From: Ideonella paludis
GTDB lineage: Bacteria; Pseudomonadota; Gammaproteobacteria; Burkholderiales; Burkholderiaceae_C
Assembly (NCBI RefSeq): GCF_018069865.1
Contig: NZ_JAGQDG010000001.1
Coordinates: 186,001-250,000 of the forward strand
Reading direction: 5' to 3'
DNA length: 64,000 bases
A model generated the notes under the pieces. That model had not been told where the DNA came from. It worked only from the letters and a program-made list of their open reading frames with translations, and did not search any database. Positions 20,250 through 34,078 of this stretch are shown here, in pieces. Made by a program: the position numbers and the translations under genes. Within the stretch, counting starts at the first letter, position 1. The number at the start of each line of letters is the position of its first letter.

Positions 20250-22121
20250 ATGAGCGCCTATGACAGCCCCCGTCTGATTGCCGACATTGGCGGCACCTTT
20301 GCCCGCTTTGCGCTGGAGACCGCGCCGGGCCACCTGGAGCAGGTGGCTTCCTTGCGTTGTGCCGAGCATGCGGATTTTTTGAGCACGGTGCAGGCCTATC
20401 TGGCCACACTGGAGGAGCCGACGGCCATCCGCCATGCGGGCATTGCGATTGCCAACCCGGTGGACGGGGACTTGGTGCGCATGACCAACTACCACTGGCA
20501 GTTCTCGATTGAGCAGACGCGTGAGCAACTGGGTTTTGAGACCCTGGTGGTGGTGAATGACTTCACCGCGCTGGCCATGGCCGTGCCGCGCCTCTCGGCC
20601 GATGAGCGCCGCGCCATTGGCCATGGGGTGCCGCGTGAGCCCAGTGTGGTGGGCGTGCTGGGGGCGGGCACGGGCTTGGGACTGTCGGGCTTGATCCCGG
20701 CCTCGGGCGGCTGGGTGGCGCTGGGCACCGAGGGCGGCCACGGCAGCTTCTCGCCGCGCGATGAGCGCGAGATCGCCATCCTGCGCCATGCCTGGAAGCA
20801 GTACGGCCATGTCTCGTTTGAACGCCTGTGCTCGGGCCCCGGCCTGGAGCTGATTTACCGCGCGCTGGCCGAGCAAGGCGGCCAAGCTCTGCCGCCGCTG
20901 ACAGCACCCGACATCACCCAGCGTGCGCTGAGCGGGGTGGACCCTTTGTGCCGCGACACGGTGGACACCTTCTGCGGCATCTTGGGCACAGCGGCTTCCA
21001 ACCTGGCCGTCACGCTGGGGGCGTTTGGCGGCGTCTACATCGGCGGTGGCATCGTGCCGCGCCTGGGCGATTATTTCGAGCGCTCGCCCTTCCGCGCCCG
21101 CTTTGAAGAGCGCGGCCGCTTCAGCGACTATGTGCGGGCCATCCCCACCTATGTGATCACCGCCAACAACGCCACCTTCATGGGCGTGTCGGCCATTTTG
21201 GATGCGCAACTGCGCACGCTGGAAACGCGGGTGGGCGGTGCCATCTTGGAGCAGATTCGTCGCTCCTTAGACAAGCTCTCCCCGGCCGAGAAGCGCGTGG
21301 CCTCGCATGTGCTGGCCCACCCGCGCGCAGCCCTGAATGCACCCATTGCCGACATTGCCCGCGCGGCCGATGTGAGCCAGCCCACGGTGATCCGCTTTTG
21401 CCGCTCGCTGGGCTGCGAAGGCCTGTCGGACTTCAAGCTGCGCCTGGCCTCGGGCCTGACGGGCACCATCCCCATCACCCACACCCAGGTCACCGGCCAA
21501 GACAGCACGGTGGAGCTGGGCGAGAAAGTCTTGTCCAACACGGCAGCCGCCATCTTGCGGGTGCGCGAGCAGCTCAACCGCGAGGCGATTGAACGCGCCA
21601 TCACCTTGCTGGACGGCGCCCACCGGATCGAGCTGCATGCGCAAGGCCACTTTGCGATGGTGGCGCAGGACGCTCAATTCAAGTTCTTGCGCTTAGGCCT
21701 GCCCACCAGCACCTGCACCGACCCGCGCGTGCAAAGCCTGAGCGCGGCCGTGCTGGAGCCCGGCGATGTGGTGATTGCGATCTCGGGCAGCGGCACGCTG
21801 CAAGACCTGCTGGACATGGTGGAAGTGGCGCACCAACGCGGCGCCAAGGTGATTGCGATCACCTCCAGCCACTCGCCGCTGGCCAAGCGCTCAGACGTGG
21901 TGCTGCCGGTGGACCATGAGGAAGATGTCTCCACGCATCTGCCCATGGTCAGCCGCGTGCTGCAACTGCTGGCCATCGACATCTTGGCCGTGGGCGTGGC
22001 CTTGCGCCGCAGCGGTGAGAACCCGACCTATGACGGCGCGGGCAGCTTGCCAGCCAAGTCGGTCCAGCCGGGCGTGTCGGCCTCTTTGCCGCTGGCGCGG
22101 CTGACCACGCACAGCCGCTGA
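20250..22121 (+). CDS. glk-hexR: Bifunctional glucokinase / HexR (RpiR-family) transcriptional regulator
   Basis: A 623-residue fusion. Residues 1 to about 320 are a complete glucokinase (ADIGGTFARFAL, VNDFTALAMA, VLGAGTGLGLSGL, GVYIGGGIVPRLGD). Residues about 330-410 are an RpiR-type winged helix (LSPAEKRVASHVLAHP, DIARAADVSQPTVIRFCRSLG). Residues about 450-600 are a SIS sugar-phosphate-binding domain (AISGSGTLQDLLDMVEVA). HexR senses 2-keto-3-deoxy-6-phosphogluconate in other proteobacteria and represses central carbon genes; fusions of this kind are known in Burkholderiales. The ATG at 20250 is chosen because it begins just before ADIGGT; an upstream ATG at 20184 lacks homology. It is the likely regulator of the palindromes at 9530, 9640, 18257 and 18364. 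Confidence 0.95.
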   Translation: MSAYDSPRLIADIGGTFARFALETAPGHLEQVASLRCAEHADFLSTVQAYLATLEEPTAIRHAGIAIANPVDGDLVRMTNYHWQFSIEQTREQLGFETLVVVNDFTALAMAVPRLSADERRAIGHGVPREPSVVGVLGAGTGLGLSGLIPASGGWVALGTEGGHGSFSPRDEREIAILRHAWKQYGHVSFERLCSGPGLELIYRALAEQGGQALPPLTAPDITQRALSGVDPLCRDTVDTFCGILGTAASNLAVTLGAFGGVYIGGGIVPRLGDYFERSPFRARFEERGRFSDYVRAIPTYVITANNATFMGVSAILDAQLRTLETRVGGAILEQIRRSLDKLSPAEKRVASHVLAHPRAALNAPIADIARAADVSQPTVIRFCRSLGCEGLSDFKLRLASGLTGTIPITHTQVTGQDSTVELGEKVLSNTAAAILRVREQLNREAIERAITLLDGAHRIELHAQGHFAMVAQDAQFKFLRLGLPTSTCTDPRVQSLSAAVLEPGDVVIAISGSGTLQDLLDMVEVAHQRGAKVIAITSSHSPLAKRSDVVLPVDHEEDVSTHLPMVSRVLQLLAIDILAVGVALRRSGENPTYDGAGSLPAKSVQPGVSASLPLARLTTHSR

Positions 22122-22146
22122 AGCCTGGGCGGCAGAGGCAAAAGGC

Positions 22147-22512
22147 TCAGCGCTTTTCGTAGCTGAGCGTGCCCAGCTCGTCGGCGTAGATCACGCGGGT
22201 CTGAGGCGTGAAGCTCTCGATGCGAAACTTCACCAACATGTGCTCCACCTTGACGGTCAGCGTCTTGTTGTCGGGTGACAGCGCCCAGGTGCCACGCGCT
22301 CGCTGATCGCCCACCACGCCTTCAAAACCATTGGGCGCCGCGAAGACTTGAAACACCTGCTTGGTGCCGAAGGCTTCTTCGATGTTCAAGGTCTTGCCCT
22401 TGGGGTCTTTGAGGCCCACCAGTTGCCAAGTGCCCACCAGCTCGGTGGCGGTTTGAGCCCAGCCCGTGCTGGCCACGGCGCACAGCGCCAGCGTTGTCAG
22501 GAGTTTTCTCAT
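22147..22512 (-). CDS. Exported lipocalin-like small protein
   Basis: A 121-residue protein with a Sec signal peptide (MRKLLTTLALCAVASTGWAQ, cleavage after WA or AQ). The mature part starts TATELVGTWQLVGL, a G-x-W motif typical of lipocalin-like or DUF4488-like small beta-barrels, and is rich in alternating beta strands. It converges on glk-hexR and has its own start region. Ligand and role unknown. Confidence 0.65.
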   Translation of the reverse strand: MRKLLTTLALCAVASTGWAQTATELVGTWQLVGLKDPKGKTLNIEEAFGTKQVFQVFAAPNGFEGVVGDQRARGTWALSPDNKTLTVKVEHMLVKFRIESFTPQTRVIYADELGTLSYEKR

Positions 22513-22624
22513 CGACGTCTTCTCTCGTTTGAATGTGGCACAGAGTAGCCTTGCACTCGCAAGGCGCTGAGGCCAGTGTTTCAGAGACGTCGGCCGCTCG
22601 GCTCAAGAAAGCCTCAAGGCGGAC

Positions 22625-22981
22625 TCAAGCTGCGCTGAGCAAATCGGCGAAAAGAGCGGGCGTAAAGCCCACGCTGACTTGGCCCTGGGGCCACTCCACC
22701 ACCGGGCGCTTGATGACGCTGGGCTGCTCTTGCATCAACGCCATGGCCGAGTCGGCATCCACTACCCGGGCTTGCACCTCGGGCGGCAGCTTACGCCAGG
22801 TGGTGCCCTGGCGGTTCAGCAGCTTCTCCCAGCCCACCGCAGCCACCCAGGCGGGCAGGCGCTCAGCGGGCACGCCGGCCTTCTTGAAGTCATGAAAGCT
22901 GTGGGCATGCCCCTGCTCGGTCAAAAAGGCGCGGGCCTTTTTGACGGTGTCGCAGTTGGGGATGCCGTAGAGCGTGGTCAT
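22625..22981 (-). CDS. ArsC/Spx-family thioredoxin-fold reductase (YffB-like)
   Basis: A 118-residue protein starting MTTLYGIPNCDTVKKAR; Cys10 sits at the ArsC-family position but the second active-site Cys of classical redox proteins is absent. RPVVEW and the C-terminal helix fit the YffB/ArsC-like branch, which is usually of unknown function and not a true arsenate reductase. The ATG at 22981 overlaps the stop of the zinc-finger gene by one base (TGATG), which fixes the start. Confidence 0.85.
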   Translation of the reverse strand: MTTLYGIPNCDTVKKARAFLTEQGHAHSFHDFKKAGVPAERLPAWVAAVGWEKLLNRQGTTWRKLPPEVQARVVDADSAMALMQEQPSVIKRPVVEWPQGQVSVGFTPALFADLLSAA

Positions 22982-23184
22982 CAATGACCGTGGGCGATCT
23001 TCTCGCCCGCCTTCAGGCGATAAACCGTGCCGCAATAAGGGCACTTACCCTCGCCGTTATGCGAGAGGTCCACAAAGACGCGCGGGTGGGTGCTCCACAG
23101 GGCCATTTTGGGGTTGGGGCAGGCGATCACGCCGGGGCCTTGCAGCTCGGCGGCGGTGACTTCAACAACAGCTTGTTCGCTCAT
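22981..23184 (-). CDS. CHCC-type zinc-finger domain protein
   Basis: A 67-residue protein with Zn ligands in the order C22, H33, C48, C51 (CPNP...STHPRVF...CPYCGTVYRL), the NDUFS6/zf-CHCC pattern. Small proteins like this commonly follow ilvE in Burkholderiales. Role is unknown; the mitochondrial homologue is a complex I subunit. It is 27 bp downstream of ilvE and overlaps the ArsC-like gene by a base, giving a three-gene operon. Confidence 0.9.
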   Translation of the reverse strand: MSEQAVVEVTAAELQGPGVIACPNPKMALWSTHPRVFVDLSHNGEGKCPYCGTVYRLKAGEKIAHGH

Positions 23185-23211
23185 GGCAGCTTCTCTTGAG
23201 TGGGGTTGATC

Positions 23212-24138
23212 TCAGGCGACCAAGGTCAGCCAGTGGGCGTATTTGTCGTTACGGCCATTGACGATGTCAAAGAAGGCCGCTTGGATTTTCTCGGTGATGG
23301 GGCCGCGTGAGCCGCTGCCGATCTCGATGCGGTCCAGCTCGCGGATGGGCGTGACTTCAGCGGCGGTGCCGGTGAAGAAGGCCTCATCGGCGATATAGAC
23401 CTCGTCGCGGGTGATGCGCTTTTCCACCAGCTTCAGGCCCAAGTCTTGGCAGATGTGGAAGATGGTGTTGCGGGTGATGCCGTTGAGCGCACCGGCCGAC
23501 AGATCAGGCGTGTAGACCACGCCGTTCTTGATGACAAACAGGTTCTCGCCCGCACCTTCAGAGACAAAACCGGCCGAGTCCAGCAGCATGGCTTCGTCAT
23601 AGCCATCGTCGGTAGCCTCCATGTTCGCCAGGATGGAGTTGGTGTAGTTGGACACCGCCTTGGCTTGGGTCATGGTGATGTTCACATGGTGGCGGGTGTA
23701 GCTGCTGATCTTGACGCGGATGCCGCGCTTCAGACCTTCCTCACCCAGGTACGCACCCCAGGCCCAGGCCGCGACCATGCAGTGGATCTTGTTGCCCTTG
23801 GGGCTGACGCCCAGCTTTTCAGAGCCGATCCAGGTCAGAGGGCGCAAGTAGCAGGTCTCCAGGCCGTTTTCACGCACCACGGCTTTTTGGGCTTCTTCGA
23901 GCTGCTCCACCGTGAAGGGGATCTTCATGCGCAGGATCTTGGCCGAGTTGATCAGCCGCTCGGTGTGCTCGCGCAGGCGGAAGATGGCCGTGCCCTTGGG
24001 CGTCTTGTAGGCCCGCACGCCTTCAAAGGCGCCGCAGCCATAGTGCAGCGTGTGGCTCAGCACGTGGATCTTGGCGTCGCGCCAGTCCACCATCTGCCCG
24101 TCCATCCAGATCTTGCCGTCGCGGTCGTCCATGCCCAT
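23212..24138 (-). CDS. ilvE: Branched-chain amino acid aminotransferase
   Basis: A 308-residue fold-type IV PLP aminotransferase transferring amino groups between glutamate and Val, Leu or Ile keto acids. Start region KIWMDGQMVDWRDAKIHVLSHTLHYG is typical. YLRPLTWIGSEKLGV, the PLP-lysine region TMTQAKAVSNYTNS, SEGAGENLFV and FFTGTAAEVTPI are all present. It leads the ilvE / zinc-finger / ArsC-like operon. Confidence 0.96.
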   Translation of the reverse strand: MGMDDRDGKIWMDGQMVDWRDAKIHVLSHTLHYGCGAFEGVRAYKTPKGTAIFRLREHTERLINSAKILRMKIPFTVEQLEEAQKAVVRENGLETCYLRPLTWIGSEKLGVSPKGNKIHCMVAAWAWGAYLGEEGLKRGIRVKISSYTRHHVNITMTQAKAVSNYTNSILANMEATDDGYDEAMLLDSAGFVSEGAGENLFVIKNGVVYTPDLSAGALNGITRNTIFHICQDLGLKLVEKRITRDEVYIADEAFFTGTAAEVTPIRELDRIEIGSGSRGPITEKIQAAFFDIVNGRNDKYAHWLTLVA

Positions 24139-24206
24139 GGTGCGTCTGCCCCTTGAAGAAGTTTGAAAAAGAATAAATCGGTTCGGTTGGCCCGAAACCG
24201 CCGATT

Positions 24207-24647
24207 TTAGGCGCCGGGCTGAGCCGGAGCTTGCGCCGCGTCGGCCCCCGCCGCAGCCTCCGCCTCAGGCGCTGCCGCCCGGATCAGCTGCCACTGGGTC
24301 AAGCGGCCATGGACCAGCGTCACTTCCACCCGGTCACCGTTGGCGTCCGTCCAGGCAAAGGCCTCATTGGGCGGGTCACTCAGCTTCTGCCCCAGGCTGC
24401 GCGTGTGCGGCAGGATCTCCAGCAAGGTCATGCCGGTGTTCAGCCGCGCATGCAGCATCACCGCATTGGCCACATGGCCCACCGGTGCGGCGCCCGCCGC
24501 CTGCATCACCCGCAGCGCGCGGTAGAACTGCAGCAGCAGCCAAAACACCACCACCGTCAGCGCCAACACCACACCATAGCCGCCCCATTGCCACCAGCCC
24601 ACAAACACCGCCAACACGGCCAGGGCCCAACCTACTCGCTTGTCCAT
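24207..24647 (-). CDS. Conserved membrane protein of unknown function
   Basis: A 146-residue protein with one or two N-terminal membrane segments (WALAVLAVFVGWWQWGG and VVLALTVVVFWLLLQFY) and a small soluble domain whose second half (AFAWTDANGDRVEVTLVHGRLTQWQL) looks beta-rich. The tail is Ala/Glu-rich. I do not recognise the family. The start is supported by AGGAAAG upstream. It is preceded by about 70 bp of unusually CA-rich leader (low complexity) on its own strand. Confidence 0.6.
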   Translation of the reverse strand: MDKRVGWALAVLAVFVGWWQWGGYGVVLALTVVVFWLLLQFYRALRVMQAAGAAPVGHVANAVMLHARLNTGMTLLEILPHTRSLGQKLSDPPNEAFAWTDANGDRVEVTLVHGRLTQWQLIRAAAPEAEAAAGADAAQAPAQPGA

Positions 24648-24751
24648 CGCTTGTTCTTTCCTGCTGTCGTGCTGTGTTCTGTGCGTGCTGTGCTGCGTAC
24701 TCTGCTGCGCGTTTTGCTGAGATTAGGCCGTGCGTGCATCGGCCCGCAGCC

Positions 24752-25108
24752 TCAATCTGGCCGAGAGGCTTCGGCAGGCGCCTGCCCCGAGGCCGCGTCC
24801 CAAGCATAGGCCCGCTCCACCTTGGTGATGCGGGTTTCGTAATGGCTGTACCAACGCGCCCGGCCATCATTGCGCGCGTCGGTATGCTCGGCGTGTTTGC
24901 GCCAGGCCGCAATGTCTTCCAAGCTGCGCCAATAGGAGACCGTGATCCCCAGCCCATCCGCCCCCCGCGCGCTCTGCACGCCTAAGTAGCCCGGCTGCTG
25001 GGCCGCCAGCGCCACCATGCGCTCTGCGGTGTCGCCATAGCCGTCATCGACGGCGGTACGCTGGCTGGTGAAGATGACGGCGTAGTAGGGTGGGGCGGGG
25101 GTTTGCAT
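24752..25108 (-). CDS. Antibiotic biosynthesis monooxygenase (ABM) domain protein
   Basis: A 118-residue protein starting MQTPAPPYYAVIFTSQR. An ABM-like ferredoxin fold is suggested by YAVIFTSQR, MVALAAQQPGYLG and ITVSYWRSLEDIAAWRKHAEH, the last being very typical. ABM proteins act in quinone or haem-type chemistry, but many are uncharacterised. The ATG at 25108 is chosen over one at 25159, whose extra 17 residues have no family match. Confidence 0.85.
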   Translation of the reverse strand: MQTPAPPYYAVIFTSQRTAVDDGYGDTAERMVALAAQQPGYLGVQSARGADGLGITVSYWRSLEDIAAWRKHAEHTDARNDGRARWYSHYETRITKVERAYAWDAASGQAPAEASRPD

Positions 25109-25133
25109 GGCGCAATTGTCGCTGCAGCGGCCC

Positions 25134-25745
25134 TCACCGCCGCGTCTTTGGGGCCCCACCCGCCGCCGCGCGCCCCTGCTGCCCCTCCAGCCACATCAGC
25201 GTTTCGGTGTGGGTCAAGAAGCGGCGCAGGTAGTCGGGGGAGAGGTCGCGCAGCAGACCCAGGGTGTGCAGCACCAGCCTGTGGGCGTTCAGTGGCCCGG
25301 CGTTTTGTGGGGCTTGGGTGGAGGCTTGGTCGACCACCTCTTCGGCACACAGCACGGCCCAGCTTTCGCGAAAGCGCTGGGCGCTTTTCAGTTCGGGCCT
25401 GGCTTGGGTCGCGCTAGGCCCGCCCGGCAGACCCCCAGCAGCGGCTTGGGCCACGGCTTGGTTGAGTTGGGCCAGGGCACTGGGCGGGCGCTTGGGCTTG
25501 GCGCCGGGTTGTGCAGTTGGCGGGCGTTGCGCCAGGCGCGCTTGGCAATCGGCTAGGCCTTGCGCCAGCTTGGCTTGCAGCAAGGCCTGCTGGCCCAGTG
25601 GAGCCGCCTGCAGGCGCTCGGCCAGTGAGGCGACATACTGCCAGCGCAGCGGCTCCCAGCGCGGGGCACCGGCTTGGCGCAAGGCCTGCAGTGCCGCCTG
25701 CACGTCCGGTAATGCCTGAGGGGACGATGGCGCAGCGGTGCTCAT
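25134..25745 (-). CDS. DUF2894-type protein, last gene of the MotA/OmpA-like operon
   Basis: A 203-residue, Ala/Gln-rich, cytoplasmic-looking helical protein. The conserved end (NAHRLVLHTLGLLRDLSPDYLRRFL then LMWLEG) is what I associate with DUF2894, which regularly accompanies DUF3348, DUF802 and OmpA-like genes. A central Pro/Ala-rich linker separates an N-terminal helical part (WEPLRWQYVASLAERLQ) from the C-terminal domain. The start overlaps the OmpA-like gene stop by 4 bp. Activity unknown. Confidence 0.75.
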   Translation of the reverse strand: MSTAAPSSPQALPDVQAALQALRQAGAPRWEPLRWQYVASLAERLQAAPLGQQALLQAKLAQGLADCQARLAQRPPTAQPGAKPKRPPSALAQLNQAVAQAAAGGLPGGPSATQARPELKSAQRFRESWAVLCAEEVVDQASTQAPQNAGPLNAHRLVLHTLGLLRDLSPDYLRRFLTHTETLMWLEGQQGRAAAGGAPKTRR

Positions 25746-26449
25746 GGCGCAGAGGCTGCGGAAGCGGTTGGCGTGGTTGAGGCCGAGGCAGCCGCCGCAG
25801 GCTTGCGCGCCACCCGTGGCACTGGCGCCATCTCCACCCGGCGGTTGAGGGCGCGGCCTTGCGGGTCGGCGTTGGAGGCCACTGGCTGCTCGGCGCCAAA
25901 GGCAGCGCTGAACACTTGCGAAGGCGGCATGCCTTCCTCAATCAACGCGCGGGTCACCGTCAAGGCCCGCTGGGCCGACAGCTCCCAGTTGTCGGCAAAC
26001 TTTTTGCTGCCCTGCTGCACGGCTTTGTCGTCGGTAAAGCCGCTGACCATCAGCATCTCGTCGCGCTCGGCCAAGTACACCTTGAGCGGCGGCACCAGGC
26101 TTTGCAGCACCTGGCGGCCTTCCGGCCGCAGCTCGTCCGAGCCCAGGGCAAACAGCACGGCGCCGCTGATGCCGATGCGGCCATCGTTCAGGGTGACGCG
26201 GCCGCTTTGCAGAGGACCGGCCAAGGCCTTTTCCAGGGCCATGCGGCGGGCCTCTTCTTGCTCGCGCTTGTGCACCTCGGCTTGCAGGCTGGCCACCAGG
26301 TCCATCTGCACCACCATCACGCCCACCAGCACCAGCACAAACACGCCGAGCAGGCCCGACATCAGGTCGCCAAACACGGCCCAAATGGGCGCGTTGGTGG
26401 CGTCGCCGCTGTCGTCGTCGGCGTCGTCCAGCCCCACCCCGCCCATCAC
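25742..26449 (-). CDS. MotB/ZorB-like inner-membrane protein with OmpA peptidoglycan-binding domain
   Basis: A 235-residue protein. A short acidic N-terminus leads into one membrane helix (PIWAVFGDLMSGLLGVFVLV) in which an Asp (FGDLMS) sits where MotB, ExbD and ZorB carry the proton- or ion-binding Asp. After a short coiled linker an OmpA-like domain (about 95-205) includes VLFALGSDEL, VSGFTDD and DNWELSAQRALTVTRAL, the peptidoglycan-binding helix. The tail is Ala/Ser/Thr-rich. It overlaps the MotA-like gene by 4 bp, so they are a stator-type pair. Confidence 0.85.
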   Translation of the reverse strand: MMGGVGLDDADDDSGDATNAPIWAVFGDLMSGLLGVFVLVLVGVMVVQMDLVASLQAEVHKREQEEARRMALEKALAGPLQSGRVTLNDGRIGISGAVLFALGSDELRPEGRQVLQSLVPPLKVYLAERDEMLMVSGFTDDKAVQQGSKKFADNWELSAQRALTVTRALIEEGMPPSQVFSAAFGAEQPVASNADPQGRALNRRVEMAPVPRVARKPAAAASASTTPTASAASAP

Positions 26450-28935
26450 CCTTCAACCCCCAGAGGCAGCGGCGCTTGAGTGCCCCGGGCCGGGCGCAGT
26501 TGGCGCAGGTCTTCGACGATGCTTTGCTGGGCGCTGAGGCTGAGGTCGATGACCTCGCGCGCCTGGGCCACGTAGTAGGCCAGTTGCTCGTCGCTGCGCG
26601 ACATGGATTGCGCCAAGGCGCTCTCCACCCGCTGCAGGCTGGCCATGAGTTGCTCATTGCTGCTGCCGAACAGCATCACGCCTTGGTGGAAGGCATCGCC
26701 CAGCGCCGCCAACTCCGCAGCACTGGCGCCCACTTGTGCGGCCAGCGCTTCACTGCGTTCGGCCTGAGCCCCCAGGGTTTGGGTGAACTGCTGGCTGGTT
26801 TGCTGCAGGGTGGCAGAGGCCGCGCTCACCAGGGTTTCAATGGCGTCACGCTGCTGGGCGGTGGTGTGCTGCACGCTGCTGAGCAGCTCGCTGATCTGGG
26901 CCACCAGGCTGTGGCGCTCTTGCAAGGTGTGGTTGTCGCGCTCGGCCAACTGGCTCATCTCCTGGCGCAGTTGGGCAATCACTTCGGCGGCCGCCTTGGG
27001 CGCTTCAGAGGCGGTGTGCATCAGGCGCGTCATCGGGGCTTCCAGCGCGGCGCCCAGCGTGGCGAGCTGGGTGGACACATGGCTGGCCAGCTCAGCCTGC
27101 AAGGTGCCCAGGCGTTGCACTGCGGCTTGGCCGCGCTGGTCTTCTTGCTCGCGCAGGGCGGAGAGCTCGCTGCGCCATAGCGTGGCCAGCTCGTCCATCT
27201 GCTGCCGCTGGCCTTGCTCCCACTGGGCCTCCGAGGCGGTGCGCGCCTGCACCAAACCTTCAGACTGCTGAAGGAGCTGGGTGACCTGCGCCAGCAGCTG
27301 CTGCGACTGCGCTTGCGCCTGCTCGCTGAGCTGCTGCGCCGTCTGCGCGACGGCCTGGCTGGCCTGCTGCTGCTGGGCCAGAGTGTGCGCGCTGAGTTGC
27401 TGCCACTCAGCTTTCAGCGCCTGGGTCAGGGCCTGCAGGCTGTTCGTCCAGGCCTGCTGCTGCTGCGCTTGGGCTTGGACCTGCTCGGTTTGGACCTGGG
27501 CCCCTGCGGCCTGCAATTGGGCCAATAGCGCCGTGGCGCGCTCATCAAAGTGCGCAGCCCAGCGGGCTTGAGCGCCCTCCAGCCCCGCCAGCAAGCTGCT
27601 GCTGCCGCGTTCTTGCTGAGACTGAGCTTGAGCCCAGGCCTGCTGCAGCGCTTCCAAGCGGGCGTGCTGCTCTGCCTGGGCCTCGGTGGTCGAGCTGTGC
27701 AGATGGGCCATCAGCGCTTGGGCGCGCTCCTCAAAGCTGCCGGCAAAACGGGCCAACGCCGCCTCCCAAGCCTGCTGCATCTGGGCACTGCTGTGCTGAT
27801 GTTGGGTCAGCGTTTGGGCCAGGGTCTGGTGGGTCTGGGCGGTGCTGTGGCTGAACTGCTGGGCCAAGCCGTCCAACTGGGCTTGCACCACAGCGCTGAC
27901 CCGCTCGTGCAAGCGCTGCGACTCGGCGGCCATCTGAGCCAAGGTCTCTTGCAGCATGGGCTGCAAGGTCTGGGTGGCGGCTTGGGCCGTGGCCTGCAGG
28001 CTCTCGTGGGCCGCTTTGGCGGCGGTGTCGATGCTGTGGCTCAAGCTGTGCTGTACGCTCTGGGCCAAGCTGCTGTAGGCGGTGGTGGCCTCTTGGTGGA
28101 ACTGGGCTTGGCGAGCCAGCAGTTGCTCGTCCATCTGTTGGCTGCGCGCGGCCAGTTGGCTCATCAGCGCCTCCACCTGCTGCGCCACTTGGGGCAAGGC
28201 CTGCAGGTGCAGGGCCAGCTCCGGCAGGGCTTGCATCTGGCGCGCCATGTCCGGCAGAGCTTGGGCTTGCTGCTGCAGGGCCAAGAAGGTGGCCTCGCGC
28301 TGCTGGGCCAGTGAGAAGGGTCGCAGCGTGGTGGCGGCCGCATCGTCCAAGGCGCGCAGGGCGTGCGCGCGGTCGCGCCGTGCCAAGGTGGTCATCACAC
28401 CCAACAGCGCCGAGCCCGCCACGCCCGCCACCGAGCAGCCAAACGCCAGGCCCAAGCCCTTGATGGGCTCGGCCAGCGCGGCGCGCATGGCGGCCAAATC
28501 GGCCGAGCCTTCCAGCGCAAACACCGTGCCCTTGAAGGTGAAGACCAGGCCCAAAAAGGTGCCGAGCATGCCCAGCATCACCAAGAGGCCAATCAGGTAA
28601 GGCGTGAGCGCCAAGCCCGGGAGCTGGCCGCGCTCTTGGGTGACGCGCTGGCGCACCGCCGCTTGCAACGCGGGGGGCACCCGCCCCAGCCACTCCTCCA
28701 GGCGGGCGAGGGAGGGCGGCATGTCTTGCAGCGCCTGGCTCAAGCCCTGAGTGGCTTGGGCAAAGCGTCGGACCTCCATGGCACCCAGCACATACACACC
28801 GGCAATCACCAGCGTCATCACCAGTCCCAGCGGGCTGGAGCCGGCCAGCGCCGCCGCCACACCCAAAATGGCCAGCAGACCCACGGCGAACAGCAGGGCA
28901 AGAAGGGGTCGATTCATCGAAGAAGAAGCATGCAT
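26446..28935 (-). CDS. MotA/TolQ/ExbB-like channel protein with long coiled-coil tail (DUF802, ZorA-like)
   Basis: An 829-residue protein. Two N-terminal helices (about 10-50), then a MotA/TolQ-type pair: YLIGLLVMLGMLGTFLGLVFTF and PIKGLGLAFGCSVAGVAGSALLG with the typical small-residue and Gly pattern. From about 200 to 790 it is almost uninterrupted Gln/Ala/Leu-rich coiled coil, far longer than the MotA cytoplasmic domain (E. coli MotA is about 295 residues in total). The C-terminal part ends EVIDLSLSAQQSIVEDLRQLR. I associate this with DUF802. Such a tail is the hallmark of ZorA in Zorya defence systems. ATG 28935 or 28917 are possible starts. Confidence 0.8.
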   Translation of the reverse strand: MHASSSMNRPLLALLFAVGLLAILGVAAALAGSSPLGLVMTLVIAGVYVLGAMEVRRFAQATQGLSQALQDMPPSLARLEEWLGRVPPALQAAVRQRVTQERGQLPGLALTPYLIGLLVMLGMLGTFLGLVFTFKGTVFALEGSADLAAMRAALAEPIKGLGLAFGCSVAGVAGSALLGVMTTLARRDRAHALRALDDAAATTLRPFSLAQQREATFLALQQQAQALPDMARQMQALPELALHLQALPQVAQQVEALMSQLAARSQQMDEQLLARQAQFHQEATTAYSSLAQSVQHSLSHSIDTAAKAAHESLQATAQAATQTLQPMLQETLAQMAAESQRLHERVSAVVQAQLDGLAQQFSHSTAQTHQTLAQTLTQHQHSSAQMQQAWEAALARFAGSFEERAQALMAHLHSSTTEAQAEQHARLEALQQAWAQAQSQQERGSSSLLAGLEGAQARWAAHFDERATALLAQLQAAGAQVQTEQVQAQAQQQQAWTNSLQALTQALKAEWQQLSAHTLAQQQQASQAVAQTAQQLSEQAQAQSQQLLAQVTQLLQQSEGLVQARTASEAQWEQGQRQQMDELATLWRSELSALREQEDQRGQAAVQRLGTLQAELASHVSTQLATLGAALEAPMTRLMHTASEAPKAAAEVIAQLRQEMSQLAERDNHTLQERHSLVAQISELLSSVQHTTAQQRDAIETLVSAASATLQQTSQQFTQTLGAQAERSEALAAQVGASAAELAALGDAFHQGVMLFGSSNEQLMASLQRVESALAQSMSRSDEQLAYYVAQAREVIDLSLSAQQSIVEDLRQLRPARGTQAPLPLGVEG

Positions 28936-28960
28936 ATCAGGTCAGGTCGGGTGTCGCCAC

Positions 28961-29647
28961 TCACTCTTGGGCAAGGGCTTCGAGCAAACCGAGGATGGGC
29001 TGCAGACGCAGGTCCAACTCGGCGAGCAGGGTCTGCTCAAACTCGTTGACAAATTGAGCCAGCCAAGCGGCCTGCGGGTGCACGGGCACCAGGGCTTGGG
29101 CAGGGCCATCGGCAGCGGCGGGCTGATGTTGAGTGCGCAGTTGCTGATAACGTGTTTTTAAGAAGCTGGGCACACCAGCGAGCAGCCGCTGCTCGCGCGC
29201 AGCCAGCATCTGGCCCAGCAGGGTGTCCATGGCCACCAACTGCGCCAAGCGCGGCGAGGATTGTGCAAGAAGGCCTTGGCGCACATGCTCGCGCAAGGCC
29301 TGCACGCTCATCTCCATGCGGCGTTGCTCGTCTTGGTAGCGCTGGTGGTAGAGCGGGTACTCAGTGTCCAGCGTCTTTTCGCGGCGGGTGATGCTGGCGC
29401 GCAGGGTGTGGCGCGTGCGCTCCAACGCCTGCTGCAAGTCTGCGGCCGCAACCTTGCCCTGCTGGGCCTTGGGCAGCGTCGGCGTCTGGGCCACACTTTG
29501 CTGCGCCGCATGCAAGGTGATGGCGTCCGCCACATTCAGCCACTGCGCCATGCGCTGCGCCACGCCGGGGTCGGCAGGGGCAGGGGCCGGCACTCCAGGG
29601 GCCAAGCTCGCCAAATGGCGCACCAGTAGAGAGTCATTGAAGCGCAA
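28961..29647 (-). CDS. DUF3348-type protein, first gene of the MotA/OmpA-like operon
   Basis: A 228-residue helical protein. The N-terminus (FNDSLLVRHLASL...AQRMAQWLNVADAITLHAA) matches what I know of DUF3348. The middle is basic and coiled (RRMEMSVQALREHVRQGLL). The start is a TTG with AGGA six bases upstream; the next gene begins 26 bp after its stop. It precedes the channel gene and probably acts with it, but no catalytic motif is visible. Confidence 0.75.
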   Translation of the reverse strand: MRFNDSLLVRHLASLAPGVPAPAPADPGVAQRMAQWLNVADAITLHAAQQSVAQTPTLPKAQQGKVAAADLQQALERTRHTLRASITRREKTLDTEYPLYHQRYQDEQRRMEMSVQALREHVRQGLLAQSSPRLAQLVAMDTLLGQMLAAREQRLLAGVPSFLKTRYQQLRTQHQPAAADGPAQALVPVHPQAAWLAQFVNEFEQTLLAELDLRLQPILGLLEALAQE

Positions 29648-29681
29648 AAGTCATCCTTCGCTCTGCGGCTGCAGAGCCCTT

Positions 29682-29919
29682 AGCCTAGAAACGGCAGTTG
29701 GACACGGTCGAAAGTGCCGTGATGCGGTGCGCCAGCAAGGCGCGACGACGCAGCGGGCCTGTGCCCGCAAGGAGGAGCAACGCCGCTGGCGCGTCGCAGC
29801 GCGGGGCTGGCGACCGTGTAGCGCCCTCACCCAAGCGGTGAGCATGGTCGTGAACACATTTTGCAGTAGTGAGAAGGACTTGCATGCGGAGCAAAGCGGT
29901 CAACTGCCGTTTCTAGGCT
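29682..29919. repeat. 238-bp element bounded by 19-bp perfect inverted repeats
   Basis: AGCCTAGAAACGGCAGTTG at 29682-29700 recurs exactly inverted at 29901-29919. Inside, ACACGGTCG (29702-29710) pairs with CGACCGTGT (29811-29819), and GC-rich hairpin blocks lie between. No convincing gene is inside; short open frames here look spurious. The structure suggests a MITE-like or interspersed palindromic element, or a strongly folded RNA, inserted between the DUF3348 promoter side and the nitronate monooxygenase 3' end. Confidence 0.6.
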
Positions 29920-29934
29920 TAGGGGTCATGTTCT

Positions 29935-30978
29935 TCACAGCGGGTTGAGGCGCTGGGTCAGCGCGGCGGCGCTGAGGGGCTGGCCCGTGCGCAAGAGGGC
30001 TGCATTTTGCCCGGCCCACAAGGGCGTGAAGTCACAGCGCCCTTGGGCCTCGGCCGCCGCCCGCAAGGGGGCCAGGGCTGCCGTGGCCAAAGGGAAGGCC
30101 GGGGCCAGCGGGCTCATGGGCTCCTCTGCCATGAAGGCATTGACGATGCCCCGCGCAGGCCGGCCGGTAAAGCGGTTGGTCAGTGCAGTCTGCTGGGCAG
30201 CCGGGCTTTGCAAGGCCTCTCGGTGCAGGGCCGAGGTGGTGGCTTCCGGGCACAACAGATAGGCCGTGCCAACCTGCGCGGCCACCGCGCCCAGGGATAG
30301 CACAGCCGCCACCCCAGCAGCGTCGGCAATGCCCCCGGCGGCCACCACCGGCACGCTGACCGCCGCCCGCACCTGGGGCAGCAGCGCCAGGGTGTCGCCT
30401 TGCAGGCTCAAGTCCTCGCTCAAGAAGTGGCCTCGGTGGCCTCCGGCTTCCAGGCCTTGGGCAATCACGACATCGGCGCCCTGGGCTTGCAGCCAGCGTG
30501 CTTCGTCCACCGTGGTGGCCGAAGACATCACCACCGCGCCGGTGGCCTTGACGCGGGCCAGCAAATCCGCAGGCGGCAAGCCGAAATGAAAGCTGACCAC
30601 AGGCGGGCGCAAGGCCTCGACCAAGGCGGCAGACTCCGCACTGAAAGGCTGGCGCGCAGCACTGAGCGGCAGCGCGGGCGCCGCCACCCCCCAGGCCGCA
30701 TAGTGCGGTGCCAGGTGCGCCAGCCAAGCCGCTTCCCGCGCAGGCTCATGCACCGGGGGCGTGTGGCAGAAGAAGTTGACCGCCCACGGGCGGCCGCGCG
30801 CGCCATCGGCCAGGGCATGCATTTGTACAGCCAAGGCCTCGGGCGCCAACATCGCGGCTGGCAGCGAGCCCAAGCCGCCACCGTCCATCACCGCGAGGGC
30901 CAAGCGTGCGTCTTGCACGCCGGCCATCGGCGCTTGGATGATGGGCGTGGGCAGGGCCACGCGGCCGAGCTGGATCAC
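29935..30978 (-). CDS. Nitronate monooxygenase (2-nitropropane dioxygenase family)
   Basis: A 347-residue FMN-dependent TIM-barrel enzyme that oxidises alkyl nitronates such as propionate-3-nitronate. Family blocks: PIIQAPMAGVQD at the N-terminus, VVSFHFGLP, the catalytic-loop QGLEAGGHRGHF with its His, PVVAAGGIADAAGVAAVL, VGTAYLLCPEA and FTGRPARGIVN. The start is a GTG overlapping the radA stop (GTGA), so it is expressed with radA. The physiological role is usually protective or unknown. Confidence 0.92.
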   Translation of the reverse strand: MIQLGRVALPTPIIQAPMAGVQDARLALAVMDGGGLGSLPAAMLAPEALAVQMHALADGARGRPWAVNFFCHTPPVHEPAREAAWLAHLAPHYAAWGVAAPALPLSAARQPFSAESAALVEALRPPVVSFHFGLPPADLLARVKATGAVVMSSATTVDEARWLQAQGADVVIAQGLEAGGHRGHFLSEDLSLQGDTLALLPQVRAAVSVPVVAAGGIADAAGVAAVLSLGAVAAQVGTAYLLCPEATTSALHREALQSPAAQQTALTNRFTGRPARGIVNAFMAEEPMSPLAPAFPLATAALAPLRAAAEAQGRCDFTPLWAGQNAALLRTGQPLSAAALTQRLNPL

Positions 30979-32342
30979 AGCAGCCCCCGCAAGACATCAA
31001 TCGCTTGCTCGATGCGGTCGACTGGATGAATGGTGAGCCCCTCAATAGGCTTTTTGGGCGCATTGGCGCGCGGCACCACGGCCACCGAGAAGCCCAGCTT
31101 GGCGGCTTCTTTGAGGCGCTCTTGGCCGCGTGGCGCGGGCCGCACCTCGCCCGCCAAGCCGACCTCGCCAAAGGCGATGAAGCCGCGCGGCAGGGGCTTG
31201 CCGCGCAAGCTGCTTTGGATGGCCAGCATCACGGCCAGGTCAGCCGCCGGCTCGGTGATGCGCACGCCGCCCACAGCGTTGACAAACACGTCTTGATCGG
31301 CGCAAGAGACACCCGCATGGCGGTGCAACACCGCCAGCAGCATGGCCAGGCGGTCGCGGTCCAGGCCCACGCTCAGGCGGCGCGGGCTGGGGCCGCCGCT
31401 GTCCACCAAGGCCTGGATCTCCACCAACAAGGGCCGCGTGCCTTCAAGCGTCACCAAGACGCAAGAGCCGGGCACTGGCTCGTCATGCGTGGACAAAAAG
31501 ATGGCGCTGGGGTTGGAGACGCCTTTGAGCCCGCGCTCGGTCATCGCAAACACGCCGATCTCATTGACGGCGCCAAAGCGGTTCTTGATGGCTCGTACTA
31601 AGCGGAAGCTGCTGTGGGTGTCGCCCTCGAAATAGAGCACGGTGTCGACGATGTGCTCCAGCACGCGTGGGCCGGCCAGCGCGCCTTCTTTGGTGACATG
31701 GCCGACCAGCACCATGGCGCAGTTGCGCGCCTTGGCCACGCGGGTGAGCTGGGCCGCGCACTCGCGCACCTGGGCCACCGAGCCCGGCGCGCTGGAGAGC
31801 TGGTCGGAGTAGAGCGTTTGGATGGAGTCGATGACGCAAAAGCTGGGGCGCTCCGCCTCAATGGTGGCGAGGATTTTTTCCAGGTGGATCTCGGCCACCA
31901 CGCGCACCTGCTGGCCGGATAAATCCATGCGCCGCGCCCGCATCGCTACTTGCGCGGCCGACTCTTCGCCCGTGACATAGAGCACAGGAATGCGGGCACT
32001 CAAGGCCTCTACGGCCTGCAGCAGCAAGGTGGATTTGCCAATGCCGGGGTCGCCACCGATCAGCACCACACCGCCCTCCACAATGCCGCCGCCCAAGACG
32101 CGGTCCAGCTCATCCAGCCCCGTGGGCGTGCGCTCCACATCCGAGGCCTCAATGGCCGCCAAGGTGGTGACAGGCTGCGAGCTGGCCAGCGCGGTGAAAC
32201 GGTTTTTGGACGGCCCCGCTGCAGGCTCAGCCACCCCTTCTTCCAGCGTGTTCCAGGCCTTGCAGTGCGGGCATTGGCCGAGCCACTTGGGGCTGGTGCC
32301 GCCGCACTCGTTGCAGGTGTAGAGGGTCTTGACGCGGGACAT
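30975..32342 (-). CDS. radA: DNA repair protein RadA
   Basis: A 455-residue branch-migration helicase-like RecA paralogue. It has an N-terminal C4 zinc finger (CNECGG...CPHC), Walker A GGDPGIGKST, the RadA-specific IKNRFGAVNEIGVF block, and a C-terminal Lon-protease-like domain (RRLSVGLDRDRLAMLLAVL...VFVNAVGGVRI). The ATG at 32342 opens directly into the zinc-finger region; a farther upstream start at 32396 adds residues without homology. Divergent from a beta-helix lipoprotein gene. Confidence 0.96.
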   Translation of the reverse strand: MSRVKTLYTCNECGGTSPKWLGQCPHCKAWNTLEEGVAEPAAGPSKNRFTALASSQPVTTLAAIEASDVERTPTGLDELDRVLGGGIVEGGVVLIGGDPGIGKSTLLLQAVEALSARIPVLYVTGEESAAQVAMRARRMDLSGQQVRVVAEIHLEKILATIEAERPSFCVIDSIQTLYSDQLSSAPGSVAQVRECAAQLTRVAKARNCAMVLVGHVTKEGALAGPRVLEHIVDTVLYFEGDTHSSFRLVRAIKNRFGAVNEIGVFAMTERGLKGVSNPSAIFLSTHDEPVPGSCVLVTLEGTRPLLVEIQALVDSGGPSPRRLSVGLDRDRLAMLLAVLHRHAGVSCADQDVFVNAVGGVRITEPAADLAVMLAIQSSLRGKPLPRGFIAFGEVGLAGEVRPAPRGQERLKEAAKLGFSVAVVPRANAPKKPIEGLTIHPVDRIEQAIDVLRGLL

Positions 32343-32515
32343 TGGAAAGGTAAGCAGGTGTGAAGCTGGCGAGAAGCCGGGCAAAGTCCGCGCCATTCTC
32401 GCAGCAGTGGGCAGCGTTCTCTGTCAGAGTACAGGCTCAGCACTTTGCCGGTTTGGCGGCCGCCCCTTTGGCGCACCTGACACGCCGTACATTGGCTCAC
32501 CTGCCCTGTTGTCTC

Positions 32516-34078
32516 ATGCCACACACTCGACTCGTCACGCCACGACGCACGCCCTCTTCCACCACACGGTGGTCTCGCTTGGCTTGGCTGATGCTGTGCG
32601 TGAGCTTTTTGGGCCTGCAAGCCTGTGGCGGCGGCGGCGGCGGCAGCCCGGACCCCAATGCCGGAGGCCCAAGCCCTGCACCGGCCCCCTCGCCGGCACC
32701 AGCGCCTGCGCCGGCGCCCTCCCCCGCACCAACACCCGCACCCGCCCCTGCACCCACACCGGCCCCCACACCGCCGCCCACGGCCGTGGTGTGGGTCGGG
32801 CCGGCCAGCAGTGCACCGGCTGGCGCCACCGTGCGGGCCAGCCTGCAGGCCGTGCCTTGGGCCACCTTGCCCGCTGGCGCCTTGATCGTGGTCGGGCCTG
32901 GTGCACAGGCAGGCCCCATCACCATCACCAGCCAAGGCACAGCGGCACAGCCCATTGAAGTGCGCGCGGCCGACACCAGCAACCCACCGGTGGTGAACAG
33001 CTCCTTTGATTTCCAAGGCGCGGCCCATGTCAAGCTCAAAGGCTTTGTGGTCAGCGGCTCGCCGTGGGGCGCGGTCGTGATCCGGCGCGGCAGCCACCAC
33101 ATCACCATTGAGGGCAACACGCTCAAGCAGTCCTATATGGGCGTGAACATCAGCGATGGCGCGGGCGAAGGCCTGCAGATCGTCGACAACTTGATTGAGG
33201 ACAACGAAACCCACGGCGTAGCCATTGCGGTAGAGAACACCGCGCAGGCCGCCACCTCACGCGTGGCGGGCAACACCATCCGCCGCAACGGCCACCACGG
33301 CATCGAGATCCAAACCTCGCATTACGTGATTGAGCGCAATGTGGTGAGCGAAAGCGGTCGCGGCATTGGTGGGGCCTCGGGCATCCACCTCTTCAGCCGC
33401 AATGCGGCCGAGAACACCGGTGACAACAACGTCATCCGCTACAACTTCAGCTTCAACAATGTGGACCAGTTGCTGCACTGGGACGGCAATGGCATCCAAG
33501 CCGACCAATGGTGCGATGGCAATGTGATTGCCTACAACGTGGCCTGGGGCAATGATGGCGCGGGCCTGATCTTGTTTGACGCCGTCAACAACGAAGCGCA
33601 CAACAACACCTTGATCGGCAATGCCCGAGACCAAGGCCGCGCGGCCAGCGCAGCGGGCGACCTGATTCTCAGCAGCTCCGCCGCCGGCAGCTTGCGCAAT
33701 GCCAACAACCGGGTCTACAACAACCTGATCGTGCCGACGCGCAGTGGCGCCGCAGGCCTGACGATTGATGCGGCCACCGCAGCCAATCCCAACAGCATCG
33801 GGCCGAATCTGTGGGTGCCCCACCCAGAGGCCACCGCCGTGGTGCGCAAGGGCAGCAGCACAGCCCGCAGCGCCAGTGAGGTGGATGCCTTGCTGGGCAG
33901 CAGCGGCAACGGCGTGGAGGCCTTGTCCTTCAGTGACCTCAATGCCCCGCTGAGCCACGGCCTGAAGCTCACCCGCAAGCCCAGCCGCAATGGCCTCACA
34001 CCCACCGGCAATGACCTGCAGGGGACGGCCCCGCAGGCGGGCTACAGCTTCTTCGGCGCCTACTACACGGCGCCTTGA
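32516..34078 (+). CDS. Right-handed beta-helix lipoprotein (paralogue A)
   Basis: A 520-residue surface-type protein. Signal segment (RLAWLMLCVSFLGLQAC) ends in a lipobox, LGLQ-AC, so it should be lipid-anchored. A GGGGGG and a roughly 40-residue Pro/Ala repeat linker follow. The rest consists of parallel beta-helix rungs with repeated N-x-I/V-x-x-N-x motifs (HHITIEGN, GLQIVDNLIEDN, YVIERNVVSE), as in pectate lyases, NosD or C5-epimerases. Conserved blocks FDFQGAAHVKLKGFVVSGSP and WDGNGIQADQWCDGNVIAYN are shared with the paralogue at 34895. A polysaccharide lyase or epimerase role is plausible but the substrate is not readable. Confidence 0.8.
   Translation: MPHTRLVTPRRTPSSTTRWSRLAWLMLCVSFLGLQACGGGGGGSPDPNAGGPSPAPAPSPAPAPAPAPSPAPTPAPAPAPTPAPTPPPTAVVWVGPASSAPAGATVRASLQAVPWATLPAGALIVVGPGAQAGPITITSQGTAAQPIEVRAADTSNPPVVNSSFDFQGAAHVKLKGFVVSGSPWGAVVIRRGSHHITIEGNTLKQSYMGVNISDGAGEGLQIVDNLIEDNETHGVAIAVENTAQAATSRVAGNTIRRNGHHGIEIQTSHYVIERNVVSESGRGIGGASGIHLFSRNAAENTGDNNVIRYNFSFNNVDQLLHWDGNGIQADQWCDGNVIAYNVAWGNDGAGLILFDAVNNEAHNNTLIGNARDQGRAASAAGDLILSSSAAGSLRNANNRVYNNLIVPTRSGAAGLTIDAATAANPNSIGPNLWVPHPEATAVVRKGSSTARSASEVDALLGSSGNGVEALSFSDLNAPLSHGLKLTRKPSRNGLTPTGNDLQGTAPQAGYSFFGAYYTAP

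What the first reader, a model, noticed from the sequence alone, without database searches (positions are those of the whole stretch)
25134..29647. Four-gene ion-driven-motor-like operon resembling Zorya anti-phage defence
DUF3348, a MotA/TolQ-type protein with an unusually long (about 600-residue) Gln/Ala-rich coiled-coil tail, a MotB/OmpA-type protein with a membrane Asp, and DUF2894 are joined by 4-bp overlaps or a 25-bp gap. The ZorA/ZorB pair of Zorya has the same design: a stator with a long intracellular tail plus a peptidoglycan-anchored partner. I recall a type III Zorya with two further genes (ZorF, ZorG), which may correspond to the DUF3348 and DUF2894 genes, but I am not certain of that mapping. 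The alternative is a conserved housekeeping motor of beta- and gammaproteobacteria of unknown role.
Basis: partly seen in the sequence, partly recalled or inferred. Interest (0 to 1): 0.82.

Follow-up and report, generated by a model that had tools for sequence, protein, structure and literature searches.

The report
A type III Zorya anti-phage operon
These four genes are a member of an already described bacterial phage-defence system, Zorya type III, built around an ion-driven membrane motor; what is odd is its inheritance, since one related genus almost always keeps exactly one copy but often in a different place on the chromosome.

Summary
Four minus-strand genes at 25134-29647 match all four PADLOC type III Zorya protein families (ZorA3 3e-221, ZorB3 1e-106, DUF3348 1e-53, DUF2894 3e-51). 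Payne et al. 2021 defined this set as Zorya type III and reported phage protection in E. coli (passages): a new member of a known kind. ZorB Asp28 aligns with Asp24 of solved ZorB 8VVN and is invariant in 81 of 81. For the window, a fixed housekeeping locus is not supported: the genus has ZorB3 in 11 of 16 genomes, five genus-mates show the radA site without the operon, and ZorB's tree contradicts RadA's (AU p 0.003). Two points look new to me. DUF3348 and DUF2894 are predicted all-helical without a nuclease or helicase match, so the published 'motor recruits a nuclease' model lacks a visible nuclease here. And in one related genus 87 of 89 genomes have ZorB3, once each, yet 20 of them show 12 different neighbourhoods against one for radA: neither patchy defence nor fixed housekeeping. 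Mechanism beyond homology is inferred.

The parts
28961..29647 (-). DUF3348 gene (ZorF of Payne et al.; ZorG3 in PADLOC-DB), first gene of the operon
   Evidence: Pfam PF11828 6.8e-50; PADLOC PDLC00658 1.3e-53; AF2 model all-helical, pLDDT 86.9, pTM 0.83
26446..28935 (-). zorA3: MotA/TolQ-like stator with long cytoplasmic tail, 829 aa
   Evidence: PADLOC PDLC00648 3.3e-221; hydrophobic stretches 6-56, 105-136, 160-182
26449..28290 (-). ZorA tail, residues 216-829, Gln/Ala-rich, hydrophobic periodicity 3.65 residues
   Evidence: total ZorA length 564-1011 aa over 76 sequences (5 shorter rows left out), some possibly shortened by contig ends
28558..28560 (-). ZorA Thr126, polar residue of the predicted ion path (role inferred)
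   Evidence: 76 of 77 sequences
28432..28434 (-). ZorA Ser168, polar residue of the predicted ion path (role inferred)
   Evidence: 76 of 77 sequences
25742..26449 (-). zorB3: MotB-like, one membrane helix plus OmpA domain, 235 aa
   Evidence: PADLOC PDLC00651 1.2e-106; Pfam OmpA 2.4e-18
26366..26368 (-). ZorB Asp28 codon, the predicted ion-binding membrane aspartate
   Evidence: aligned to Asp24 of 8VVN_B, the critical Asp of type I ZorB; invariant 81 of 81
25841..26155 (-). ZorB OmpA-like peptidoglycan-binding domain, residues 99-203
   Evidence: D140, N154, L157, S158, R161, R199 and N202-E206 invariant in 81 of 81
25134..25745 (-). DUF2894 gene (ZorG of Payne et al.; ZorF3 in PADLOC-DB), last gene of the operon, basic protein
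   Evidence: Pfam PF11445 1.5e-39; PADLOC PDLC00652 3.4e-51; pI 10.6, family median 10.8 over 63 sequences; AF2 all-helical, pLDDT 80.4, pTM 0.46
29935..30978 (-). nitronate monooxygenase-like gene next to the operon, also not found at the radA site of the 11 genus-mates read apart from G011; not part of the system

Best explanation
A complete type III Zorya anti-phage operon with all four frames open, acquired at this site. Shown by homology: ZorA3 and ZorB3 are an ion-driven stator pair of the MotA/MotB kind with the conserved Asp, a peptidoglycan-binding OmpA domain outside and a roughly 600-residue, probably helical tail inside. Inferred from solved type I and II relatives: five ZorA surround two ZorB; phage injury to the cell wall lets ZorB grip peptidoglycan; ion flow turns ZorA and its tail; the tail passes the signal inward. 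Inferred here: the two helical proteins without membrane segments (near-neutral DUF3348, strongly basic DUF2894) work at the acidic tail, DUF2894 by contact with the tail or with nucleic acid, and either act themselves or bring in a host nuclease, because no nuclease or helicase is recognisable in the operon and no fifth gene travels with it.
For: All four PADLOC type III families; the published definition with phage protection for the same gene set (passages of PMC8565338). Asp28 = Asp24 of 8VVN_B, invariant 81 of 81. Obligate unit: in 300 genomes of the family, ZorB3, DUF3348 and DUF2894 over their cut-offs occur in the same 96 genomes. No fixed fifth gene: commonest upstream neighbour 6 of 67, downstream 4 of 77. 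Accessory and transferred in this lineage: 11 of 16 in genus; radA-site comparison; ZorB tree splits the genus, AU p 0.0033, RadA tree unites it. No nuclease-like match for DUF3348 or DUF2894. No hydrophobic segment in either.
Against: No defence island: of 129 neighbour proteins scanned, PADLOC hits are few. In one genus it is near-universal (87 of 89) and in another 6 of 6, unusual for a defence system. The sister genome G011 has a broken copy. DUF2894 also rang, over its cut-off, in a control genome (Corynebacterium glutamicum) in which ZorB3 and DUF3348 did not (not followed up), so that family may not be confined to Zorya. In one of 20 loci of genus g10 (L231) DUF2894 was not matched. Phage activity, complex formation and tail signalling are not shown for this copy.
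Confidence: 0.85

Rival explanations
1. A conserved cellular motor (for example envelope maintenance or stress sensing) whose phage protection on a plasmid is a side effect. It would be selected for a daily function in genera where nearly every species has it.
For: 87 of 89 genomes of one genus and 6 of 6 of another, always one ZorB3; few defence neighbours; type III Zorya is shown as a highly conserved system (at least 90% of genomes of the species by that paper's definition) in R. solanacearum (PMC13064858, passages).
Against: DUF3348 in 31 of 399 genomes of the order, ZorB3 in 96 of 300 of the family and 11 of 16 in the window's genus. Location changes: 12 neighbourhood groups in 20 genomes against 1 for radA. 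Operon and RadA trees reject each other. Published plaque reduction.
Confidence: 0.2
2. Abortive ion leak: phage-triggered opening of the ZorAB channel itself kills or stalls the cell, and DUF3348 and DUF2894 are only sensors or regulators. No nuclease is needed.
For: No nuclease, helicase or known enzyme fold found in either extra protein; Payne et al. propose ZorF/ZorG as regulators of ZorAB.
Against: In types I and II the effector acts on DNA (ZorE nickase; ZorD reported to target DNA; passages of PMC11890865). DUF2894 is basic, which fits nucleic acid or tail binding. Not tested here.
Confidence: 0.3
3. A paralogue of TolQR, ExbBD or flagellar MotAB, named Zorya only by distant resemblance.
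For: ZorB's best solved match by sequence is a putative MotB, 3KHN (3.2e-16).
Against: Type III profiles exceed all other PADLOC profiles by far; Pfam MotA_ExbB does not match this ZorA; co-occurrence with DUF3348 and DUF2894.
Confidence: 0.02

Closest known systems
Zorya type III (Payne et al. 2021, PMC8565338)
   Same: Same four genes (zorAB plus DUF3348 and DUF2894); all four profile families match.
   Different: No experimental test of this copy; tail length and sequence are its own. The names ZorF and ZorG are swapped between the paper and PADLOC-DB 2.0.0.
Zorya types I and II (PMC11890865, passages)
   Same: ZorAB stator, membrane Asp, peptidoglycan domain, long ZorA tail.
   Different: No ZorC/ZorD helicase pair and no ZorE nuclease in the operon; ZorA1 and ZorA2 profiles only weakly matched (best 3.7e-7 and 5.7e-5).
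MotAB / ExbBD / TolQR motors
   Same: Ion-driven stator design; MotB-type OmpA domain.
   Different: Long Gln/Ala tail, two extra cytoplasmic proteins, no Pfam MotA_ExbB match.

Membership tests
Zorya type III | ZorA: MotA/TolQ-type protein with long cytoplasmic tail | tested here: met
   PDLC00648 3.3e-221; 614-residue tail
Zorya type III | ZorB: MotB-type protein with membrane Asp and OmpA domain | tested here: met
   PDLC00651 1.2e-106; Asp28 aligned to Asp24 of 8VVN_B; OmpA 2.4e-18
Zorya type III | DUF3348 protein in the operon | tested here: met
Zorya type III | DUF2894 protein in the operon | tested here: met
Zorya type III | The four genes adjacent on one strand | tested here: met
   same order in 73 of 81 loci, 7 of the other 8 cut by a contig end. 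PADLOC's own system rules and cut-offs were not run
Zorya type III | Protects against phage | not testable with these tools
   shown in print for the S. nitritireducens system (passages)
Zorya (all types) | ZorA5:ZorB2 complex with ion flow | not testable with these tools
   no complex prediction was available; solved for types I and II (passages)
Zorya type I | ZorC and ZorD (helicase) genes in the operon | tested here: not met
   none among the four genes or, by Pfam alone, six neighbouring proteins; the rest of the genome was not searched for them
Zorya type II | ZorE HNH nuclease gene in the operon | tested here: not met
   none among the four genes or, by Pfam alone, six neighbouring proteins; the rest of the genome was not searched for it
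Fixed-locus housekeeping motor | Universal in the clade with fixed neighbours | tested here: not met
   11 of 16 in genus, 96 of 300 in family; neighbours vary. Near-universal only in some genera

The most novel reading that the evidence does not exclude
Type III Zorya is a copy-controlled, self-contained four-gene module: some genera retain it in nearly all species, always as one copy, while it is repeatedly moved or replaced at new chromosomal sites. That would mean second copies are harmful (for instance motors poisoned by mixed subunits) and that the module defends by a route without its own nuclease, with two helical proteins of no known fold coupling a rotary motor to the effector step.
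Probability: 0.35. Interest if true: 0.65.

Novelty: new member of a known kind. Interest (0 to 1): 0.42.

Why it matters
The system is known, so the find itself is ordinary. It sharpens two open questions. First, the general model in which Zorya motors recruit a nuclease has no visible nuclease in type III, and since no fifth gene travels with the operon the effector must be ZorAB itself, one of two uncharacterised helical proteins, or something of the host. Second, a defence module kept by nearly every sampled species of a genus, always in one copy but often at a different place, fits neither the patchy-defence nor the housekeeping picture and suggests that copies exclude one another, which a two-copy strain could test directly.

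Tried and rejected
Fixed-locus housekeeping motor: rejected for the window's lineage by presence, site and tree tests, kept open as a function in other genera. Defence-island context: not seen among 129 neighbour proteins. A fifth co-travelling gene: not found. Known fold for DUF3348 or DUF2894: no Foldseek PDB match at E 0.001 or better (best 0.47 and 2.5); the only PDB sequence-profile hit below 0.1 was PscE over 46 residues for DUF2894 (0.0029), judged chance on a short helical stretch. Remote kinship of DUF3348 and DUF2894 to each other: none. Target-site duplication at the two ends of the insert: the longest shared word was 9 bp, judged chance. Rfam: nothing at gathering score in 22000-33000. 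Sigma-70-type promoter scan of 24700-30000: none found.

Weak points. Alignments for folding held 72 rows each, the window plus 71 of 72 DUF3348 and 71 of 79 DUF2894 genes; I left out the shortest. ORFs in flanks were chosen by a GC-position rule of my own, not by a gene finder. The 129 neighbours scanned are those of the nearest genes (67 upstream, 77 downstream, window included) that were uncut, 90 to 700 residues long and not the window's own. Of 30 genomes asked for RadA, L062's was not held and L038's gave no match, so the trees have 28 named rows. The ZorB tree has long end branches (G008, G012, L094, L102); the RadA tree is a quick one with a long-branch warning for L102. The relocation control is one gene, radA, and the 20 genomes were picked by me out of 87 for long contigs. 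The number of site groups depends on my threshold of two shared genes out of about eight. In one search only part of the first-look candidates was scored per genome, so a second copy could be missed there; all were scored except in genomes with more than 29. In one search one RadA row (G790) was a 9-residue piece that spoils the first tree test; it was dropped and the test repeated with 19 genomes. The distance correlation contains that bad row, so one search is the one to use. Absences in G003 (1220 contigs) and G013 (80% complete) are weak.

Full report
What is there. Pfam confirms DUF3348 (6.8e-50), DUF2894 (1.5e-39) and the OmpA domain (2.4e-18) but gives the stator no MotA_ExbB match; a search of the window's own genome with that Pfam model gives seven matches, none of them this gene.

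Identity. PADLOC's type III Zorya models match all four: ZorA3 3.3e-221, ZorB3 1.2e-106, DUF3348 1.3e-53, DUF2894 3.4e-51; type I and II ZorA models match only weakly (best 3.7e-7 and 5.7e-5). Payne et al. 2021 (PMC8565338; passages read) reported 6,401 zor gene pairs flanked by DUF3348 (their ZorF) and DUF2894 (their ZorG), named them Zorya type III, and saw reduced plaquing of at least one phage in E. coli with the Stenotrophomonas nitritireducens system. PADLOC-DB 2.0.0 labels DUF3348 as ZorG3 and DUF2894 as ZorF3, the reverse of the paper. A full-text search for DUF2894 or DUF3348 found two papers in all, this one and PMC11890865; in the passages I saw, nothing goes beyond Payne's proposal that the two proteins regulate ZorAB.

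Motor anatomy. ZorB has one hydrophobic segment (20-57) and ZorA three stretches (6-56, 105-136, 160-182), the first long enough for two helices, as in a four-helix MotA-like stator; DUF3348 and DUF2894 have none. ZorB Asp28 aligns without gaps to Asp24 of 8VVN_B, which PMC11890865 names as the critical aspartate of type I ZorB (passages); it is invariant in 81 of 81 sequences, and ZorA Thr126 and Ser168 are kept in 76 of 77. The match of the ZorA head to solved ZorA 8VVN_C is weak (E 0.0044). In the OmpA domain D140, N154, R161, R199 and N202 to E206 are invariant. The tail, residues 216-829, is 39% Gln plus Ala, has 9 prolines and a hydrophobic periodicity of 3.65 residues. ZorA length in relatives runs from 564 to 1011 residues over 76 sequences, some possibly shortened by contig ends; 5 shorter rows were left out.

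The two extra proteins. AlphaFold2 on 72-row alignments gives all-helical models: DUF3348 pLDDT 86.9, pTM 0.83; DUF2894 pLDDT 80.4, pTM 0.46, so its overall arrangement is unsure. Foldseek against the PDB gives no match at E 0.001 or better for either. Profile searches of PDB sequences give nothing for DUF3348 up to E 1 and for DUF2894 three hits, the best PscE at 0.0029 over 46 residues. They are not related to each other. DUF2894 is basic (pI 10.6; median 10.8 over 63), DUF3348 near neutral as a family (median 7.0 over 72, though 9.2 in the window), and the ZorA tail is acidic (net -26). So the nuclease that the general Zorya model calls for (ZorD, ZorE; passages) is not visible in type III. 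Absence of a match does not prove absence of activity.

A four-gene unit. In 300 genomes of the window's family, ZorB3 is found in 96, DUF3348 in 97 and DUF2894 in 97; the two extras are one below-cut-off match each, so the sets over the cut-off are the same 96 genomes. Against this: DUF2894 rang over its cut-off in one of 14 control genomes, Corynebacterium glutamicum, where ZorB3 and DUF3348 did not; I did not follow that up. Among 80 named loci plus the window, 73 of 81 show the order DUF3348-ZorA-ZorB-DUF2894; in 7 of the other 8 a contig end cuts the locus, L069 is not explained. No other gene travels along: the commonest upstream neighbour is shared by 6 of 67 loci and the commonest downstream one by 4 of 77. 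Of 129 neighbour proteins scanned with PADLOC at 1e-10, the hits are up to three each to UvrD-helicase, mads and reverse-transcriptase-associated models, one CARF regulator and one DUF3348 piece. I see no defence island.

Acquired, in the window. ZorB3 is present in 11 of 16 genomes of the genus (E below 1e-70); G003 and G013 are fragmented or incomplete, so absence is firm for G006, G007 and G015. I read the radA region of 12 genus-mates. In G011 the NMO gene and the operon lie about 2 kb from radA. In none of the other 11 is there a zor gene. In five of these (G004, G005, G009, G010, G012) radA is followed within about 75 bp by the ABM-domain gene that flanks the operon here, then ilvE, with neither NMO nor operon between; G008 has the same genes with a 1.5-kb gap, G007 lacks the ABM match, and in G006, G002, G001 and G015 the ABM-ilvE order was not found beside radA. 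All of the five carry ZorB3 elsewhere. The operons of ten genus members (window included; G002 cut at a contig end, G012 not read) fall into at least five places. RadA puts the 11 genus members together (quick tree, SH-aLRT 94). ZorB splits them: window and G011 lie among Comamonadaceae, nearest to Hydrogenophaga, the other nine beside Zoogloea, Thauera, Azoarcus and Aromatoleum; one clade is rejected with AU p 0.0033. In G011 the operon is broken: DUF3348 lacks residues 28-91 and ZorA residues 70-312, with shifted frames; an assembly error cannot be excluded.

Near-core, single and restless elsewhere. In the order, DUF3348 is in 31 of 399 genomes, 30 over the cut-off. But in one genus of the family (g10, not named by the tool) 87 of 89 genomes, one per species and at least 95% complete, have ZorB3, each exactly once, and in another 6 of 6. 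If copies came and went independently at the rate needed for 87 of 89 presence, about 79 of the 87 would be multi-copy. I fetched 20 of the 87, picked for long contigs; 19 show all four genes in order and one (L231) shows no DUF2894 match. In these 20 the operon falls into 12 neighbourhood groups (one of six genomes, three of two, eight single), with 18 of 190 pairs sharing two or more of about eight neighbour genes; radA in the same genomes gives one group and 150 of 190 pairs. Operon and RadA distances correlate (rho 0.63, 0 of 2000 permutations as high, 19 genomes), yet each data set rejects the other's tree (AU 2e-4 and 6e-7). I read this as mostly kept within the genus, often moved, sometimes exchanged. 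RadA alone is a thin species marker.

Related reports. A 2026 paper shows type III Zorya as a highly conserved system in R. solanacearum (PMC13064858, passages), so conservation within a species was known; that paper counted presence irrespective of genomic position. In B. cenocepacia K56-2 the first one or two genes of the Zorya I and III operons changed expression on infection (PMC12584637, passages). A Variovorax strain is listed with Zorya type III (PMC11953036, passage). I made no search aimed at relocation or single-copy behaviour in print; my five searches asked for Zorya types and gene names, so 'new' here means new to me.

Conclusion. A member of a known system with a correct first reading. 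The unsolved parts are the effector step of type III and the inheritance pattern.

Noticed in passing
window 29674-29927: A 254-nt segment in the gap between the NMO gene and DUF3348, bounded by 27-bp inverted repeats (93% complementary) and predicted to fold into a long hairpin (z -7.5). Its ends occur nowhere else in this genome at up to 3 mismatches, and a 15-base core of them occurs exactly in no other locus of the 251 held at the time but L118, this genome's own radA locus; the gap is about 50 bp in G011. Possibly a solitary miniature element inserted just before the operon.
   Followed up: partly
L164 (G011) 0.5-15.5 kb: The radA-ABM junction looks like an insertion spot: G011 has an AlbA_2/Schlafen-like gene between radA and NMO, and a sigma-factor-like gene, a serine/threonine-kinase-like gene and others between the operon and ABM (ORFs; these names are my own reading of the translations, not searched).
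   Followed up: no
L164 8.9-12.6 kb: The sister genome's copy of the operon is broken in DUF3348 and ZorA while ZorB and DUF2894 are matched in one open frame each.
   Followed up: partly
PADLOC-DB 2.0.0 against PMC8565338: The names ZorF and ZorG are swapped between the defining paper (DUF3348 = ZorF) and the profile library (DUF3348 = ZorG3).
   Followed up: yes
control genome: The DUF2894 profile rings over its cut-off in Corynebacterium glutamicum, where ZorB3 and DUF3348 do not: a DUF2894 outside Zorya, or a chance match.
   Followed up: no
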